A stretch of DNA of 24,317 nucleotides from a virus, in the IMG/VR virus record IMGVR_UViG_3300030106_003612, positions 1 to 24,317 of that record. The stretch is one strand, 5' to 3'. The notes beneath the pieces were generated by a model that was not told the DNA's origin, did not search any database, and saw only the letters and a program-made list of their open reading frames with translations. This document shows positions 6,641 to 24,185 of the stretch, piece after piece. The position numbers and the translations under genes are program-made. Position 1 is the stretch's first letter; each line of letters begins with the position of its first letter.

Positions 6641-6805
6641 TTACCCCCTCTTCGGAGGGGGGTTTTTTACCAAGTTATCGTACTTCTCTTTATACTCCAG
6701 AGCAAGCTTTCTGTTAAGCTCTGCTTCTCTTTTTGCGTATATAGCTTCCTCTTTTAGCTCGGTTATCTCTGCTAGAATAGAGTCTATTACAGTAGGTCTT
6801 TTCAT
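6641..6805 (-). CDS. Small coiled-coil hypothetical protein
   Basis: A 54-residue, charged, helical protein (ILAEITELKEEAIYAKREAE). The start ATG at 6805 overlaps the stop of the upstream DUF3310 gene as ATGA, with GGAGG seven bases before it; an upstream extension would run inside that gene and is rejected. The last codons (N-P-P-P-K-R-G, stop) are written in the hairpin of the late terminator on the other strand, so the C-terminus may be shaped by the terminator rather than by protein function. It is the last gene of the leftward unit. Function unknown. Confidence 0.65.
   Translation of the reverse strand: MKRPTVIDSILAEITELKEEAIYAKREAELNRKLALEYKEKYDNLVKNPPPKRG
6644..6668 (+). terminator. 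Rho-independent terminator of the late virion genes
   Basis: The seven-base stem CCCCCTC / GAGGGGG closes on a TTCG loop, giving the very stable C(UUCG)G tetraloop in RNA, and is followed by G and six T. It lies 14 bases after the stop of the 1297-residue protein. The opposite strand has no T tract after the stem, so it should act on rightward transcripts only. The last codons of the convergent minus-strand gene lie inside this hairpin. Confidence 0.9.
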
Positions 6806-7074
6806 TTTGAATCCTCCAGTAAAGCTTGTCTCAACTTCTCTTGATACCACGTAGCCTTTGCCAAATCCTGGATAGGTTTGCCTTTGCTACGAAGCCTCCA
6901 GAGATACTTCATCGCATTCCCCCTTAGAAACCCTATAAACTCTTCTTTACTTAGCATAGACTGTAGGGCTGCTATGCACTCGATATTCCCTTCGTTGTAG
7001 TGCTCTGGGCTGTTAACCAACTCTTCTCTTATGTCGTAAGATGATTTATCTTCGTCTCCCTCCAACCACTTCAT
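6802..7074 (-). CDS. DUF3310 family protein (related to the C-terminal part of T7 gp1.7)
   Basis: The 90-residue protein carries the DUF3310 signature almost throughout: VNSPEHYNEGNIECIAALQ, then F-I-G-F-L-R-G-N-A-M-K-Y-L-W-R and KGKPIQDLAKATWYQEKL. The family is common in phages. T7 gp1.7, which contains this domain, is reported as a nucleotide kinase; whether this short form has activity is not known. It lies directly after the ribonucleotide reductase gene with an ATGA overlap (7071-7074), so the two are probably translated together, in keeping with a role in nucleotide supply. Confidence 0.85.
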   Translation of the reverse strand: MKWLEGDEDKSSYDIREELVNSPEHYNEGNIECIAALQSMLSKEEFIGFLRGNAMKYLWRLRSKGKPIQDLAKATWYQEKLRQALLEDSK

Positions 7075-11972: not shown

Positions 11973-12000
11973 ATTATACCACACATCTGCCTTTATTCAA
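11973..12000 (-). promoter_or_regulatory. Sigma70-type promoter for the SSB gene and genes downstream
   Basis: Reading the minus strand, TTGAAT (11995-12000), 16 bases, then an extended -10 TGGTATAAT (hexamer at 11973-11978). It overlaps the polymerase stop codon and points at the SSB gene about 45 bases away. The 15-base sequence TGTGGTATAATATTA is repeated exactly inside the primase gene at 15296-15310. Confidence 0.75.
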
Positions 12001-12821
12001 ACATTATGCTTGACTTCTAGCAAAGTTAATCCCATAGAATAATCTACGGGAAATTCTATCGGGCTTTTAACTCCGAACGTCTCAGAAATAGCCTTTGGAA
12101 CACCCTTCAGCAGGTCTGCTATTCTCTTGGCTATGTCTTCCGAATCTTTTTCTGGTATCTCACACAGCACCGAATCGTGTACCGTGTTGAGCAATGTTAT
12201 GGGTTTGTCCAAAGCGTACTTGGACAGCCTATTCAGCATAAGCATCATAATATCCGAGGCAGCTCCCTGTATCGGATAGTTCTTGCACTTGGTCGGAGAT
12301 ACATATGCAGTATTCTTGTACTTGGATATATCTCCCGCAACTGCAAAGTGAGTTATAGCTCGACCAGAATCGTCCCTCCAAATTCCTGGAATGTAAAACC
12401 GAGGTACGCTCTCTCCGTCTTTGCGGTCTCCCTTGTGGACCAGAGAATCCTCGGCCTCTTTCTGGACTCTCTTTTGCCAAGCGTGGACTTGGGGGTATCG
12501 AGTATAGTACTCGTCTATAAAAGCCTTTGTAAGCTCCTCTTTAACGTCCCAGAATCGAGCTATGCCCTTGGCTCCAGCCCCATACTGAAGCTGAAAGCTG
12601 AATCCTTTGGCTACCTTTCGTTCTCCAAAATTTATATCTTTCTCTGGCTTGTTGTATATCTTACTGGCAAAGTAGGTGTGCATATCCTGCCCGTTGTTGA
12701 TATCGAGTATCAGTTGTTTATCCATAGAGGCTAGAGCTAGCACTCGTATCTCCAGTTGGGCGTAGTCAAACTCCGCAAACGTGTTCGGATAGCGAGCTAC
12801 AAAGTAGTTCTGTATGTTCAT
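11997..12821 (-). CDS. DNA polymerase A, palm/fingers part (second half of a split gene)
   Basis: This 274-residue polypeptide carries the catalytic core of a family A DNA polymerase. Motif A is F-A-E-F-D-Y-A-Q-L-E-I-R, motif B is R-K-V-A-K-G-F-S-F-Q-L-Q-Y-G and motif C is V-H-D-S-V. In motif B the residue equal to E. coli Pol I 762 is Phe (T7 has Tyr), a position linked in virioplankton work to enzyme behaviour and lifestyle. It lacks the exonuclease and thumb, which the preceding gene encodes. The ATG overlaps that gene's stop as ATGA. Read upstream in its own frame it continues R-E-E-G-I-R before a stop, recalling the EEGRRIR block of E. coli Pol I. The two products must associate, or be joined by frameshifting. 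Confidence 0.93.
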   Translation of the reverse strand: MNIQNYFVARYPNTFAEFDYAQLEIRVLALASMDKQLILDINNGQDMHTYFASKIYNKPEKDINFGERKVAKGFSFQLQYGAGAKGIARFWDVKEELTKAFIDEYYTRYPQVHAWQKRVQKEAEDSLVHKGDRKDGESVPRFYIPGIWRDDSGRAITHFAVAGDISKYKNTAYVSPTKCKNYPIQGAASDIMMLMLNRLSKYALDKPITLLNTVHDSVLCEIPEKDSEDIAKRIADLLKGVPKAISETFGVKSPIEFPVDYSMGLTLLEVKHNV

Positions 12822-13996
12822 TCTGATTCCTTCTTCCCGTTAATGTTTTGCATATTTGGTTTACTGCTACTTAATCTGCCTGTCTGCGTAACGCAGTGGT
12901 TGTAGGACGGGTGCAGCGTGTAGTCTACCGCAAAAGATATGTAAGGGCGATAGTAGGTGGATATGCTTTTAGAGACTTGTCTCAAAATCTCTATCTCAAA
13001 ACATAAATCCTCTGCGGGACTGTCTTCCTCATACTTTTGTATGTACTCTAGCGTCTTAGCACCCGCTTTCTTTTCCCACCCACGATTCTCGAAAAGCTTT
13101 ATAGTTTCTGGCTTTACCATAGGCTCGACTCTCTGCTTTCTTATTCCCTTGCGGGTCTTTATCTGCCCCTTCTTATCGCCAGACTTATAACGAACTGGGT
13201 TACCTTCCTCATCAAGCACTTCTTCTACGATAGGCACATTTACTTCTCCACCCCAGAGAAGAGTTTCTATCTGGGCGGCAGAGTTCGGATTAAACTCGCC
13301 AGGATAAATGTCTTTGTACCGCTCGGCAAGATATTCTTCCTTCTGCATAGCCACAAGATGCGTTTTCTTCGATTGTTTCGTTGCACCTCCAGTATCAAAC
13401 TCGAAACCTACGTGGGTCATTTGGCTTGTGACCCCGATACCGTTAAGCATCTCTAGGTAATACTTTTGGGTTTGCTCTGGTTGCTGAGATAACCAAGCAT
13501 ACTGCTTATCGAATATCTGTTTAGTTACTCGAACATCCGATTGCAAGTAGCTTTCCAAAAGCTCTCGGTCTATTTCGTCAGCACCTATACCCGCCTTAAA
13601 CCGTTCCTTTATCTCGGTATCCTTACGAAAGGGTAACCTAAGACTCTTCGCTACCGTTTCTAGCGAGGGTTGTACAAGCTTCCTGCCATGCTGGATATAA
13701 GCAAACTTCTGCGTATCCCAGATAGGGTTATGCCCAAGTTCTAGCCCATATCTAGCTAGGTAGAGAATATCAAATGCTATGTTATGCCCCACAATCAGGT
13801 GTTCATCCCTTCGCATTTCCTCGGTGAATTGTTCTATCTCTCTTCTGTCCGTCAGGATATCTTCCGTCTCTCCAGACTGATAGCCTAGCATAACTATGCG
13901 GTTTGAAGGGTAAGTTGGACTTGCCCCAAAGTGTGGTGTCGGAGCTTTGATGGTAGTCTCAAGGTCTAACACGGTTATCTTATTAAAATCTAGCAT
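12818..13996 (-). CDS. DNA polymerase A, 3'-5' exonuclease and thumb part (first half of a split gene)
   Basis: The 392-residue product starts with a DEDD proofreading exonuclease: V-L-D-L-E-T-T near residue 10, V-G-H-N-I-A-F-D and Y-L-Q-S-D-V. A helical thumb region follows, and the protein ends with T-G-R-L-S-S-S-K-P-N-M-Q-N-I plus seven more residues. That last block normally sits some 25 residues before motif A in an intact polymerase, so the gene stops just before the catalytic palm. An insertion with E-V-L-D-E-E-G-N-P-V and many Lys/Arg lies at about 255-290. The start is ATG 13996, overlapping the helicase stop (TAATG) with AGGAG upstream. Confidence 0.93.
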   Translation of the reverse strand: MLDFNKITVLDLETTIKAPTPHFGASPTYPSNRIVMLGYQSGETEDILTDRREIEQFTEEMRRDEHLIVGHNIAFDILYLARYGLELGHNPIWDTQKFAYIQHGRKLVQPSLETVAKSLRLPFRKDTEIKERFKAGIGADEIDRELLESYLQSDVRVTKQIFDKQYAWLSQQPEQTQKYYLEMLNGIGVTSQMTHVGFEFDTGGATKQSKKTHLVAMQKEEYLAERYKDIYPGEFNPNSAAQIETLLWGGEVNVPIVEEVLDEEGNPVRYKSGDKKGQIKTRKGIRKQRVEPMVKPETIKLFENRGWEKKAGAKTLEYIQKYEEDSPAEDLCFEIEILRQVSKSISTYYRPYISFAVDYTLHPSYNHCVTQTGRLSSSKPNMQNINGKKESE

Positions 13997-15240
13997 TACG
14001 TAGCTCCTAGTAGAGACACAATCTGCGCTCTTTCTTTATCAATACGAACAGCAGCTCCCGCATTTCTGAAATCGTTGTTCGCATAGCTTAGTTTGTTTTT
14101 TGGGGCAGATAGAAACCTTACATCTACTCCCTCGTTGGGGTTCTGCCCTATGCAGACAATCGCATCGGCCTCTCCCTGTACCGCAGTCTTACTGTTATAC
14201 AGTGCATTCATCTTGGGGTACTTCTCCCCGTCAGCCGAACCATCTAACTGACTAGCTCCGATAATCGGACCGTACCTCTTGGCAAGCTCTCGAATGTACT
14301 GGGCTAACTTGGCGTAGCGGTCTATACCGTTATGCGAGTTTTTCTCGAAACCCCCTACCTTCCATATCTGGTCAATAATAATTATTCTGGGGTTAGATGC
14401 TTCGATAGCAGCCTCTATGTCGTGTACTGTCATGCTGGTATTGTCTAGCATTTTAATTTTACCTACACCCACCTTGTCGTTGTAGGTATCTACACTTTTC
14501 TGGAGGTCTTTCATTACCTCCTCACGAGTCCAAGCGAGGGCGGCCTGAGTCTGCCTTAATCTTACTCGACTCGCACTCTCTTCGTTGTTACACCAGAGTA
14601 CACACTCATCTTCCTTAAGCTGTTTCGCCCAGTGGACTGCTTGCGTAGCTAACAAAGTTGTCTTACCCCCGTCTGGTCTCGCACCCAAAATGATAAAGTC
14701 TCCCTTGGATATCGGGCCGAGCATCAGCTCTAGCTCTGGTACACTCCAAGAATACTTGGGAGCATCCTTCAGCTCCTGTAGTTGCTCCATCATTTCGGTA
14801 TCGGAAAGGTTGAGAGAATCCAAGTCCCACTCTACGCCCTTGACCTCCATGTTGTACTCTCTCAGCAACTCAGTAATGCGAGACATTTCGGAATCTCCCA
14901 CACTCACATCGTAAGCAGCGTCAGATATTTTCTCCGCCCAGTGGCGAGTTGAAAGTGTCTTAAGCACAGAGCAATCAACATCCTGGCAACCATCTCGAAT
15001 AAGCCACAAGTAGCCTTGTATGGCTTTTATTCGCTCGTCCGATAGGTTGGGGTGGTTAAGCGTTACCCAAGTGTTAAACTCGTTCCACTCCACCTCGGCT
15101 TTGCCCGTGTCGCTGAAGTAGGGTTGAAGTTGTTGTAAGATAAATCTTATATCTTTAGATAATCTCTCTTCTCTTATAAGAGAAGAGAATCTTTTAAGAT
15201 TAGATTCTTTAGATAATAGTTTTACAATGTCAAGTTCCAT
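13996..15240 (-). CDS. DnaB-like replicative helicase (separate from the primase)
   Basis: The 414-residue protein has a RecA-type motor in its C-terminal half. Walker A is G-A-R-P-D-G-G-K-T at 186-194, a four-Ile strand ending in Asp (I-I-I-I-D-Q-I-W) serves as Walker B, and G-A-S-Q-L-D and an Arg-rich C-terminal strand follow, as in DnaB/T7 gp4 helicases. The N-terminal 170 residues form a helical linker without primase motifs. It unwinds DNA ahead of the polymerase. In T7 the primase and helicase are fused; here they are two genes overlapping by 11 bases. Codons about 13-30 hold a 24-bp perfect palindrome flanked by 12-bp direct repeats, an unusual constraint for coding sequence. Confidence 0.9.
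   Translation of the reverse strand: MELDIVKLLSKESNLKRFSSLIREERLSKDIRFILQQLQPYFSDTGKAEVEWNEFNTWVTLNHPNLSDERIKAIQGYLWLIRDGCQDVDCSVLKTLSTRHWAEKISDAAYDVSVGDSEMSRITELLREYNMEVKGVEWDLDSLNLSDTEMMEQLQELKDAPKYSWSVPELELMLGPISKGDFIILGARPDGGKTTLLATQAVHWAKQLKEDECVLWCNNEESASRVRLRQTQAALAWTREEVMKDLQKSVDTYNDKVGVGKIKMLDNTSMTVHDIEAAIEASNPRIIIIDQIWKVGGFEKNSHNGIDRYAKLAQYIRELAKRYGPIIGASQLDGSADGEKYPKMNALYNSKTAVQGEADAIVCIGQNPNEGVDVRFLSAPKNKLSYANNDFRNAGAAVRIDKERAQIVSLLGAT
15165..15188. repeat. 24-bp perfect palindrome inside the helicase gene
   Basis: The palindrome is centred on TTATAA (15174-15179), with twelve matching bases on each side made of CTCT/CTTC runs. A second inverted repeat AATCTT-TT-AAGATT follows at 15188-15201, and the 12-mer TCTTTAGATAAT flanks the cluster at 15152-15163 and 15206-15217. 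It encodes helicase residues around 18-26. It resembles the TCTTATA/TATAAGA palindromes of the control region at 22570-22640. Confidence 0.9.
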
Positions 15241-16072
15241 GAATAACCTCTCTTATTTCCGAGTCATGTATGAAATGCTTCGGCTCTTTCTTAAGTAATA
15301 TTATACCACAATCTACAAAAGGGGAAAGTTGTTTGCGAATATCTTTCGCCCGATGTACTACTGCTTGGCTGTCATTGTCAAGCCAGACCAATACCCGCCT
15401 ACCCTCTTTATACCATTTTGTTATAAGAGAAAAGCCGTTGCTATTCAATGACGTACCCATCAAAGGTAAAGTTGCATATGACCTGCTTATCCGCAGGGCA
15501 GAGCAGTAATCTTCTGTCAATACCAAGGTATCTGGGGGCGTCTCAGCTTGTGTAAAAGGTGCGACTAATTTGCTTCCGAGCAAAATCCATTTAGGCAAGT
15601 TGTCCTTCAAGGGACGAATTGCCAAGCCAGTAATACTCTTGTTGTCTCCAGACAACGGGATTGTCAAACGGTTTCCGTCAAGCAATTTGATACCCGCAGC
15701 CTCGTACTCTGATACGTTTAGCCCATTCGAGAACCACCACTTCCTGGTAAGCAATGGCAAGTCCCCAAACGGTACGGTCTCCCATCTATCACAAGCCTCC
15801 CATTTGGTCAGCTCTGGCACTCCCCATCTCTTGAAAGGGTCTGCACTGTCTGGTTGGCAGTGTGAAGTCCTCCCAGAAATGCGTCTCTGAGCTACAGAGG
15901 GGCGATAGAAGCCACTTTGACAGCAGTGGTGGCAGTACCCTACCACTCCACCTCCTTCGACTCGTGTAAGGTAAAATTTGCGGTTCGAGTCTCCCTCCTT
16001 ACAATGGTTGATTCTAACAGAACCAGTCTCTGGAAAATGCTCCTCGTAGGGAGCTAAGTCAATCGAGTTCAT
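15230..16072 (-). CDS. DNA primase (zinc-binding and TOPRIM domains)
   Basis: A 280-residue primase that makes RNA primers at the fork. The zinc-binding module is N-H-C (Cys24) and C-H-H-C (Cys47, Cys50), one Cys pair short of the T7 gp4 four-Cys site unless His23 serves. The TOPRIM part has V-L-T-E-D-Y (Glu187) and V-W-L-D-N-D-S-Q (Asp232, Asp234), the metal-binding acidic residues. It lacks any helicase domain, which the next gene supplies. The start ATG has the strongest SD of the region (AGGAGGTGA). An extended -10 promoter lies in its 3' part and could drive helicase independently. Confidence 0.88.
   Translation of the reverse strand: MNSIDLAPYEEHFPETGSVRINHCKEGDSNRKFYLTRVEGGGVVGYCHHCCQSGFYRPSVAQRRISGRTSHCQPDSADPFKRWGVPELTKWEACDRWETVPFGDLPLLTRKWWFSNGLNVSEYEAAGIKLLDGNRLTIPLSGDNKSITGLAIRPLKDNLPKWILLGSKLVAPFTQAETPPDTLVLTEDYCSALRISRSYATLPLMGTSLNSNGFSLITKWYKEGRRVLVWLDNDSQAVVHRAKDIRKQLSPFVDCGIILLKKEPKHFIHDSEIREVIHGT
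15296..15310 (-). promoter_or_regulatory. Extended -10 promoter element upstream of helicase
   Basis: TGTGGTATAATATTA is identical over 15 bases to the element of the SSB promoter at 11969-11983. The hexamer TATAAT is at 15300-15305 with TGG directly before it. No good -35 is seen (CTTTCC at 17 bases). Initiation would fall near 15293, giving a leader of about 50 bases to the helicase ATG. The exact repeat in a coding region argues for a functional element. Confidence 0.55.
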
Positions 16073-16842: not shown

Positions 16843-16939
16843 CAGCGTCCCGCTTGATAAGCCAGAGACTCCACTTGAGTCGAAGCATACCTAGCTCCCA
16901 GTTCAAATCCGATAATAATCTTGATAGTTTAAGCAACAT
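16796..16939 (-). CDS. Very small basic/hydrophobic ORF (47 residues)
   Basis: The ORF starts at ATG 16939 (M-L-L-K-L-S-R-L-L-S-D), inside the last codons of the preceding gene, with GGAGGAA seven to eight bases upstream. The first 26 residues are amphipathic and Trp/Leu-rich (W-S-L-W-L-I); the rest is basic (R-L-R-K-V-Q-R-R). It fills the only gap between two genes in this packed operon, and its stop falls next to the good GTG start of the following gene. No family recognised. The SD-like box also encodes M-E-E of the upstream protein, so chance is possible. Confidence 0.45.
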   Translation of the reverse strand: MLLKLSRLLSDLNWELGMLRLKWSLWLIKRDADARLRKVQRRQNGGC

Positions 16940-17492
16940 CTTTTAATTCCTCCATGAAGTTTGGTGTTGGTCTGTCAGTCCATTTTGCAAAAGACTTTTT
17001 GTACTGTACATAATAGTTACGGTATGCGTCAACAGCGTTGTCAGCTTTAACATCATCAGGCATACACTGTGGCATTTCCGTAAGTCCTTTATTGTGGTCA
17101 ATGTTTTTAGGTATTAAAGGTAAATAGTGTTGTAGTGTTTGAAATGTTTTATGTTTTTTTGCATTGTGCCAAAAACGATATTCATATTCTAAACACAACT
17201 CATACCATAGGTTTGCAAGGTATCTGTAATTATCTTCGGATGCTCGTACCCATACCGCACTTGGATGGTTTATGAAGGAAGCCTTATATAAATTATTTTC
17301 CATTTCAACGTCATCAAGTTTCCAGCGTTTGATTCTACGCCCACTACTGCTGTCGATATACTGCTCTCCATTTAACACTCTGTGTGCGGTACTGAGTAGC
17401 TGTGCGTACTCTACAATCATTTTTGTGACGTGTTTATCACAATGTAACTTTGCACATTCTCTCGGATTTTCATGTAAATAAAAAATATTCAT
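16929..17492 (-). CDS. Conserved phage protein of unknown function
   Basis: The 187-residue protein opens M-N-I-F-Y-L-H-E-N-P and continues C-D-K-H-V-T-K-M-I-V-E-Y-A-Q and S-T-A-H-R-V-L. It has the later blocks N-H-P-S-A-V-W-V and R-P-T-P-N-F. I recognise this opening from proteins widespread in cyanophages and other marine phages. They are usually unnamed and sometimes annotated, weakly, as pyrimidine-dimer glycosylase-like. Conserved Cys13, Cys18, His21 and His37 could form a metal or active site. The ATG overlaps the upstream stop as ATGA. DNA repair is possible but unproven. Confidence 0.75.
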   Translation of the reverse strand: MNIFYLHENPRECAKLHCDKHVTKMIVEYAQLLSTAHRVLNGEQYIDSSSGRRIKRWKLDDVEMENNLYKASFINHPSAVWVRASEDNYRYLANLWYELCLEYEYRFWHNAKKHKTFQTLQHYLPLIPKNIDHNKGLTEMPQCMPDDVKADNAVDAYRNYYVQYKKSFAKWTDRPTPNFMEELKDVA

Positions 17493-19538: not shown

Positions 19539-19630
19539 TTTCTACCCTCCCAATACCAGACTAAACAAAGTCCTATTATAAACACACTGAAAGAAATTAC
19601 AATCGAAACGGTGTCTTGTTGGTAATACAT
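19535..19630 (-). CDS. Single-span membrane micropeptide (31 residues)
   Basis: ATG 19630 reads M-Y-Y-Q-Q-D-T-V, then a hydrophobic span of about 18 residues (IVISFSVFIIGLCLVWYW) and the polar end E-G-R-K. It is locked into the operon: the start overlaps the SprT stop (TAATG) and the stop overlaps the methyltransferase GTG (GTGA), with GAGAGG upstream. That double fit is strong support for a real gene despite its length. It may act in the inner membrane early in infection; nothing more can be said. Confidence 0.75.
   Translation of the reverse strand: MYYQQDTVSIVISFSVFIIGLCLVWYWEGRK
19575..19602 (-). promoter_or_regulatory. Possible promoter for the methyltransferase-like gene
   Basis: On the minus strand TTGTAA (19597-19602), 16 bases, then a perfect TATAAT (19575-19580), inside the membrane micropeptide gene and about 37 bases before the GTG 19538 start. 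The location in coding sequence lowers confidence. Confidence 0.35.
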
Positions 19631-20190
19631 TAGACCTCTCCCAAAGCGGGCAAAATCTGTTCTTTACATTTGGGGCAACGATAACGGGCTTGCCCTCGCA
19701 TAACCTTGTTATGTCTAACCTTTGTGAATACCCACTCTTTACACCCGCACGTATACACAGTCCCGTTTTTAACCACTTTTCGGACGTCGAGCTTATGCCT
19801 AACATTGGGCTTTGCGCCCAGGATTTTCATAAGTTTCTGCCACACTTTGCCATGCGGTCTATCCTTATAAAATCTAGACTCTTTTACATATTGGTTAGTG
19901 AGTTGGACAAAGTGGGAGACCTCATGCGGGATAGTCTGAGCGATAAAATAGTCCAAGTTATCCCGCATTAAAACTGGGTTAAAATTGATATAGCTGTCCC
20001 AGTGTAGGTCCAGAACATCCTTTGAAACGCTAGCCTGTCCCGCAGATTGTCCGCGCAAGTCTACCCTAATTCTAGGAAAGTCTAAAAAGGTTTCTAATGG
20101 TAAAAGCTTTTTATCTATTGCTTTGGATAGCGTCAAAATATGTTTTTCTGTCTCTGCACTAGCTATTTTATGCAGTTCTGTTGTGTCCAT
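19630..20190 (-). CDS. SprT-like zinc metalloprotein
   Basis: The 186-residue protein has the zincin signature H-E-V-S-H at 89-93 with a third likely ligand in H-G-K-V-W at 113-117. A C-terminal zinc ribbon follows, made by C-G-C near 148-150 and C-P-K-C at 172-175. That is the domain order of SprT and of the protease part of Spartan, which cuts proteins crosslinked to DNA. Phage members are common but untested. ATG 20190 follows GGAGG. Peptidase action is inferred from the complete HExxH motif. Confidence 0.85.
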   Translation of the reverse strand: MDTTELHKIASAETEKHILTLSKAIDKKLLPLETFLDFPRIRVDLRGQSAGQASVSKDVLDLHWDSYINFNPVLMRDNLDYFIAQTIPHEVSHFVQLTNQYVKESRFYKDRPHGKVWQKLMKILGAKPNVRHKLDVRKVVKNGTVYTCGCKEWVFTKVRHNKVMRGQARYRCPKCKEQILPALGEV

Positions 20191-23855: not shown

Positions 23856-24185
23856 ATGAGCATTGTTTTTCACAGCTCTGCTGCTAAAAAAGTTAAAGAG
23901 ATTTTACAGGAAGATTCAGAAATTTCAGAAGATATTTCTTTGCGGGTTTTTATACAGGGAGGGGGTTGTTCTGGGTTTCAATACGGATTTACTTTTGATG
24001 ACCAAAAAGAAGATGACGAAACTGTTACTACCGATGGTATTACTTTAGTTGTAGACCCCCTAAGTCTACAGTATTTAAACGGAGCAGAAATTGACTACTC
24101 TTCCAATCATTTTTCATCTCAATTTACTATTAGAAATCCGAATGTGCAGACAACGTGTGGTTGTGGAAGCTCTTTTGCTGTATAG
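23856..24185 (+). CDS. erpA: ErpA-like A-type Fe-S cluster carrier
   Basis: A 109-residue protein closely following bacterial ErpA: G-G-G-C-S-G-F-Q-Y-G-F-T-F-D-D at 35-49, V-V-D-P-L-S-L-Q-Y-L at 65-74, N-P-N at 94-96 and T-C-G-C-G-S-S-F at 100-107. The three cluster-binding cysteines Cys38, Cys101 and Cys103 are all present, so it should receive and pass on Fe-S clusters. Length is that of the family (E. coli ErpA 114) and only the first few residues diverge, so it is intact and probably active. ATG 23856 has GGAGGT eight bases upstream. It lies in the rightward phage operon before a probable endolysin gene, an auxiliary host-derived gene rather than a structural one. Confidence 0.92.
   Translation: MSIVFHSSAAKKVKEILQEDSEISEDISLRVFIQGGGCSGFQYGFTFDDQKEDDETVTTDGITLVVDPLSLQYLNGAEIDYSSNHFSSQFTIRNPNVQTTCGCGSSFAV

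What the first reader, a model, noticed from the sequence alone, without database searches (positions are those of the whole stretch)
11997..13996. Family A DNA polymerase split between the QNI block and motif A
The first ORF ends seven codons after T-G-R-L-S-S-S-K-P-N-M-Q-N-I, and the second begins about 20 residues before motif A, with an ATGA junction. Upstream of its ATG the second frame reads R-E-E-G-I-R, like EEGRRIR in E. coli Pol I, so a -1 shift in the GGGAAGAAGG run would rebuild an almost continuous polymerase. Alternatively, joining K-K-E-S-E directly to I-Q-N-Y-F-V also reads naturally, implying a small insertion. Either a recent split or a two-chain enzyme.
Basis: partly seen in the sequence, partly recalled or inferred. 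Interest (0 to 1): 0.6.

Follow-up and report, generated by a model that had tools for sequence, protein, structure and literature searches.

The report
Two-chain family A DNA polymerase
This phage makes its DNA-copying enzyme as two separate protein chains that should fit together, and the same kind of split is kept across a large set of related phages, so it looks like a stable working arrangement and not a broken gene or a sequencing error.

Summary
A family A DNA polymerase is encoded by two minus-strand genes. The N-chain (13996-12818, 392 aa) carries exonuclease, thumb and QNI block. The C-chain (12821-11997, 274 aa) carries motifs A, B and C. They overlap by ATGA.

It is not an indel error, frameshift site or decaying gene. 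The junction is the same in two independent metagenome contigs, while the halves differ at synonymous sites (dS 0.23-0.85) with dN/dS 0.03-0.05. Relatives put the C-chain in all three frames relative to the N-chain, from overlaps up to 3.6 kb downstream. The 'GGGAAGAAGG' run is the C-chain's Shine-Dalgarno. End to end, the chains tile Bst Pol I (313-632 and 632-876).

I found 74 split loci, in two groups with different breakpoints. A single origin for both is rejected (p 0.011). Vibrio phage ICP2 carries an HNH gene at the junction; its Haiti relative lacks it yet stays split. No group I intron was found where sought.

Best reading: an obligate two-chain PolA, translationally coupled, probably born near a known intron/HNH hotspot. 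Split PolA genes in ICP2 and MEP401 were already noticed, but read as intron-interrupted. Assembly and activity are inferred.

The parts
12818..13996 (-). N-chain gene: 3'-5' exonuclease, thumb, first palm segment, QNI block; 392 aa, stop TGA at 12820-12818
   Evidence: ORF; DNA_pol_A 6.3e-12, phrog_17 2.9e-43; model pLDDT 92.4, Z up to 18.4 on Bst Pol I 313-632
11997..12821 (-). C-chain gene: motifs A, B and C (palm and fingers); 274 aa
   Evidence: ORF; DNA_pol_A 1.6e-39; model pLDDT 93.4, Z 23.7 on Bst Pol I 632-876
12818..12821 (-). ATGA overlap: start of the C-chain and stop of the N-chain (translational coupling)
   Evidence: sequence; the same ATGA overlap in L002, L003, L008, L019, L103, L104, L109, L157
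12828..12835 (-).
   Evidence: sequence; C-chain starts as a group have stronger anti-SD pairing than internal ATGs
12842..12883 (-). TGRLSSSKPNMQNI block, last conserved block of the N-chain
   Evidence: alignments
13958..13966 (-). Exonuclease motif I (D11-x-E13)
   Evidence: alignments
12765..12767 (-). Motif A catalytic Asp (D19 of the C-chain)
   Evidence: alignments
12582..12620 (-). Motif B (R68, K72, F76, Y80 of the C-chain)
   Evidence: alignments
12174..12179 (-). Motif C (H215-D216 of the C-chain)
   Evidence: alignments
13996..15240 (-). DnaB-like helicase gene directly upstream; same gene order as in MEP401 and ICP2
15230..16072 (-). DNA primase gene of the same replication module
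   Evidence: phrog_47 5.5e-11

Best explanation
The phage encodes a genuine two-polypeptide family A DNA polymerase. The N-chain carries the proofreading exonuclease, thumb and first palm segment. The C-chain carries motif A, the fingers and motif C. The two are made from one mRNA by translational coupling: the ribosome stops at TGA and restarts at the overlapping ATG, helped by AAGAAGGA. They then assemble without a covalent bond into a normal PolA fold, broken only in the short segment between the QNI block and motif A (E. coli Pol I residues about 680-688). Shown: two conserved coding chains, purifying selection on both, a Shine-Dalgarno, complementary predicted folds, and conservation of the split over diverse phages. 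Inferred: that the chains bind each other and polymerise DNA. Also inferred: that the splits arose from invasion by an intron or HNH homing endonuclease at this known hotspot, with later loss of the element.
For: Split kept in L002 and L003 (93-98% identical), L008, and L004 (55-62%). dN/dS is 0.033-0.035 for the N-chain and 0.039-0.049 for the C-chain. 74 loci have the halves in separate ORFs; gaps run from overlap to 3598 nt and all three relative frames occur. In MW202796 a cytosine methyltransferase gene lies between the halves. Shine-Dalgarno pairing before C-chain starts has mean -5.0 against -2.3 kcal/mol at internal ATGs, p 7e-15. The models fit Bst Pol I 313-632 and 632-876 with no gap. 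Catalytic and exonuclease motifs are present. ICP2 has an HNH gene between the halves; ICP2_2013_A_Haiti has only 9 nt there yet keeps the stop, so an allele without the insert is not rejoined. No group I intron was found by sensitive search, with the Pf-WMP3 intron as a detected control. Precedent: split gene 43 (PolB) of phage 25 co-purifies with polymerase activity, and split NrdA of Aeh1 is fully functional (PMC2988022).
Against: No biochemistry: assembly and activity are not shown for any member. The two chains could not be folded together with the tools given. A low level of fused product by rare frameshift cannot be excluded. Class 1 (the window's type) is not resolved as one clade, and intact polymerases fall next to the ICP2 lineage, so a re-fusion or a second class-1 split is possible.
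Confidence: 0.87

Rival explanations
1. Programmed -1 frameshifting at the GGGAAGAAGG run makes one continuous polymerase.
For: The C frame is -1 relative to the N frame in the window, and the C frame is open for some codons upstream of its ATG in L002 and L003.
Against: No slippery heptamer; the relative frame is +1 in L004 and L020, 0 in L101 and Haiti, and -1 in the window. A Shine-Dalgarno and ATG sit exactly there. In the window the C frame meets TAA just upstream. Other relatives have kilobases between the halves.
Confidence: 0.03
2. Sequencing or assembly indel in an intact gene.
For: The window is an environmental virus record, not an isolate.
Against: Same junction in two independent contigs that differ at many synonymous sites, and split homologues throughout the clade.
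Confidence: 0.01
3. Gene interrupted by a self-splicing intron, as suggested for MEP401 and as RefSeq annotates ICP2.
For: HNH genes occur at the junction in some relatives. Known PolA introns lie at E. coli 674 and 676 (PMC3428280). The MEP401 paper considers it.
Against: The window has no insert at all. Haiti lacks the insert and stays split. No group I intron was found in the window or the split loci tested, although the control intron was detected. Halves 3.6 kb apart with other genes between them are not intron-like.
Confidence: 0.03
4. The polymerase is a decaying gene and the phage relies on the host polymerase.
For: Splitting inside the catalytic core would be expected to destroy a gene.
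Against: dN/dS 0.03-0.05 on both halves, intact motifs, and retention across many diverse phages.
Confidence: 0.03

Closest known systems
Split DNA polymerase of Vibrio phage ICP2 and relatives (Zobellviridae, Icepovirus; NC_015158, NC_024791, MZ073369)
   Same: Family A polymerase broken at the same place (N-chain ends QNISN, C-chain starts M-S-D-I-K); similar order of replication genes; about 30% identity to each half.
   Different: ICP2 has an HNH gene between the halves and VP41s3 a small ORF; the window has a 4-nt overlap. RefSeq joins the ICP2 halves as one CDS.
DNAP in two ORFs of OM43 phages MEP401 and MEP402 and their group I relatives (PMC10580990)
   Same: Family A polymerase in two genes in a Zobellviridae-like replication module; published as split.
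   Different: Breakpoint about 15 residues further on, just before motif A; a small ORF (gp14) between the halves; a separate group in the tree. The authors considered an intron.
Split gene 43 (43A/43B, family B polymerase) of Aeromonas phages 25 and 44RR
   Same: Phage replicative polymerase in two chains; those of phage 25 co-purify with polymerase activity (PMC2988022). Works like it.
   Different: Family B, unrelated fold; not a member.
Split NrdA of Aeromonas phage Aeh1 (mobE insertion)
   Same: Enzyme split by a homing endonuclease and fully functional as two chains (PMC2988022).
   Different: Ribonucleotide reductase, not a polymerase.
Group I intron with HNH endonuclease in phage PolA genes (SPO1, SP82, Bastille, Pf-WMP3, phiL7)
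   Same: Interruption of PolA at the QNI block (E. coli 674 or 676), a few codons before this split (PMC3428280).
   Different: There the RNA is spliced and one chain results; here no intron is found and two chains are expected.

Membership tests
Family A DNA polymerase | Match to PF00476 DNA_pol_A above the curated cut-off | tested here: met
   both chains, consecutive parts of the model; phrog_17 likewise
Family A DNA polymerase | Catalytic motifs A (D), B (R-K-F-Y) and C (HD) | tested here: met
   invariant or nearly so in the 59-row alignment;
Family A DNA polymerase | Right-hand polymerase fold as in Klenow, Bst and Taq | tested here: met
   N-chain Z up to 18.4 on Bst 313-632; C-chain Z 23.7 on Bst 632-876
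Family A DNA polymerase | Polymerase activity | not testable with these tools
   needs purified chains
ICP2-type split PolA | PolA in two ORFs, broken just after the QNI block and well before motif A | tested here: met
ICP2-type split PolA | One clade with the ICP2 polymerase | tested here: inconclusive
   one clade for all class-1 splits is neither supported nor rejected (AU p 0.186)
MEP401-type split PolA | Break just before motif A, C-chain starting M-[LI]-[LI]-x-ADA | tested here: not met
   the window breaks earlier; the MEP401 group is a separate clade (support 99-100), and one clade with class 1 is rejected (p 0.011)
Group I intron-interrupted PolA | Group I intron at the junction | tested here: not met
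   4-nt overlap, no insert; no Rfam match in the window; control intron detected
Split intein (trans-splicing) | Intein N and C parts at the junction | tested here: not met
   only 7 residues follow QNI and the C-chain starts two residues before the next conserved segment, so there is no room for an intein
Programmed -1 frameshift gene | Slippery heptamer and conserved relative frame | tested here: not met
   no X XXY YYZ site in the junction; frames differ among relatives
T4-type split gp43 | Family B polymerase | tested here: not met
   the polymerase domain matches family A in Pfam and in fold

The most novel reading that the evidence does not exclude
Splitting the catalytic core is an adaptation and not just a tolerated scar. 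Phages have split PolA at this palm segment at least twice and kept it, so chain stoichiometry, exchange or extra subunits regulate the polymerase, including a small acidic protein encoded between the halves in the MEP401 group. The free N-chain may act as an independent 3'-5' exonuclease.
Probability: 0.15. Interest if true: 0.75.

Novelty: new variant of a known kind. Interest (0 to 1): 0.5.

Why it matters
Family A polymerases (Klenow, Taq, T7) are textbook single-chain enzymes, and phage PolA is used as a marker gene in viromics. A large, diverse set of phages keeps the enzyme as two chains broken inside the palm, close to the catalytic Asp. That means single-ORF gene calls undercount or misannotate these phages (ICP2 is annotated as one joined gene). 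It also offers naturally evolved split polymerases for engineering, such as conditional enzymes. The ICP2/Haiti pair gives a natural test that the split does not depend on the HNH insert.

Tried and rejected
Indel error, frameshift, intron, split intein and pseudogene were tested as listed. Rfam at the gathering threshold proved too strict: it would miss the known Pf-WMP3 intron (31.9 bits against a cut-off of 50), so the key searches were repeated by E-value with that intron as control. 'REEGIR' as a remnant of EEGRRIR was rejected: it is the translation of the Shine-Dalgarno and is absent from the more distant relative L004. L127 was set aside because its polymerase is split elsewhere (exonuclease/polymerase boundary). 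A literature search for an engineered 'split Taq' found nothing in the held library. Calling the split recent was rejected because no intact polymerase was found inside the window's own clade.

Full report
What is there. On the minus strand, a 392-aa ORF (13996-12818) and a 274-aa ORF (12821-11997) overlap by ATGA. Pfam DNA_pol_A matches them as consecutive pieces, profile 62-136 then 140-360, as does phrog_17. The N-chain carries the exonuclease motifs D11/E13, N72/D76 and Y150/D154, and the TGRLSSSKPNMQNI block. The C-chain carries motif A D19, motif B R68/K72/F76/Y80 and motif C H215/D216. These are invariant or nearly so over about 60 relatives. By sequence, the N-half profile matches Klenow up to about residue 681 and the C-half profile from about 689. 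Placed end to end, the two chains keep the canonical 9-residue spacing between the Ile of QNI and the Ile that starts the next conserved segment.

Not an artefact and not decay. IMG/VR contigs L002 and L003, from other metagenomes, carry the same ATGA junction and Shine-Dalgarno. The halves meanwhile diverge at synonymous sites (dS 0.23-0.58 for N, 0.44-0.85 for C) with dN/dS of 0.03-0.05. The more distant L004 (55% N, 62% C) and L008 keep the split. L004 has its C-chain in a different relative frame.

A wide set of split polymerases. Profile scans of IMG/VR, with the named phage records already fetched, gave 83 loci, 74 after removing duplicates, in which the N and C halves lie in different ORFs. 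These loci were found with profiles made from split members, so their share is not a prevalence. Excluding one locus split elsewhere, 67 have a definable C-chain start: 30 of class 1 (break just after QNI, as in the window and ICP2) and 37 of class 2 (break just before motif A, as in MEP401). Gaps run from overlaps to 3598 nt, and all three relative frames occur in both classes. Between the halves lie nothing, HNH genes (clear in L018/L101/L102 and L059, weak in ICP2), DUF3310 genes (L110-L113), a cytosine methyltransferase (MW202796), or small unknown ORFs. C-chain starts have stronger Shine-Dalgarno pairing than internal ATGs (median -4.8 against -2.2 kcal/mol, p 7e-15). In the window this element is the AAGAAGGA run suspected as a shift site.

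History. Trees of the joined N and C alignments put class 2 in one clade (support 99-100). Class 1 is not supported as one clade, but a single clade is not rejected (AU p 0.186). One clade holding both classes is rejected (AU p 0.011). So the gene was probably split at least twice, at two points about 15 residues apart. No intact polymerase falls inside the window's own clade or inside class 2. In ICP2 an HNH gene separates the halves. In ICP2_2013_A_Haiti the gap is 9 nt and the stop codon remains, so the split does not depend on the insert. Known phage PolA introns with HNH endonucleases sit at E. coli positions 674 and 676 (PMC3428280), just upstream of this break. Invasion by such elements is therefore the likely origin, which is an inference. 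No group I intron was found in the window or in the split loci tested, with settings that do find the Pf-WMP3 intron.

Structure. AlphaFold models of the two chains are confident (pLDDT 92.4 and 93.4; in the N-chain only residues 387-392, at the break, form a stretch below 50). In VIA-align against solved structures the N-chain covers Bst Pol I 313-632 (Z 18.4) and the C-chain covers 632-876 (Z 23.7), with no gap.

How it most likely works. Coupled translation of two chains from one mRNA, followed by non-covalent assembly into a PolA with proofreading. Precedents for functional two-chain phage enzymes are split gene 43 of phage 25 and split NrdA of Aeh1 (PMC2988022). Binding and activity remain untested here.

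Novelty. Split PolA genes had been noticed in MEP401-like phages, where the authors considered an intron (PMC10580990), and ICP2 is annotated as one joined gene. What is added here: the evidence against an intron and against a frameshift, the probable separate origins, the translational coupling, and the structural tiling that together support a stable two-chain enzyme.

Noticed in passing
L014 5154-5387 and the gaps of L023, L024, L032, L034, L037, L042, L044, L045, L047, L048, L162, L169, L171: A small acidic protein family (MEP401 gp14; about 57-90 aa, HxHT..EF..I...G motif) sits between the two polymerase genes in many class-2 phages and gave no hit in class-1 loci or the window: a candidate third subunit.
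   Followed up: partly
L101, L102, L018 (gap 570 nt); L009 7224-7673; L059; L062: HNH or HNH-like endonuclease genes (Pfam-supported in L018/L101/L102 and L059, weak in ICP2, no Pfam hit in L062) have colonised the junction between the two polymerase genes in several lineages, including a relative inside the window's own clade.
   Followed up: partly
window 23856-24185 +: A-type iron-sulphur carrier (Fe-S_biosyn, 1.2e-20), a host-like metabolic gene on the phage.
   Followed up: no
window 19630-20190 -: SprT-like metalloprotease domain.
   Followed up: no
window 16929-17492 -: Weak pyrimidine dimer DNA glycosylase match (Pyr_excise).
   Followed up: no
window 6802-7074 -: DUF3310 protein; the same family lies between the two polymerase genes in L110-L113.
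   Followed up: no
L127 3339-5289: A polymerase whose ORF is broken at a different place, between the exonuclease and polymerase domains.
   Followed up: no
NC_015158.1 40112-42680: RefSeq joins the ICP2 polymerase halves as one CDS although no intron was detected there; probably a misannotation.
   Followed up: yes
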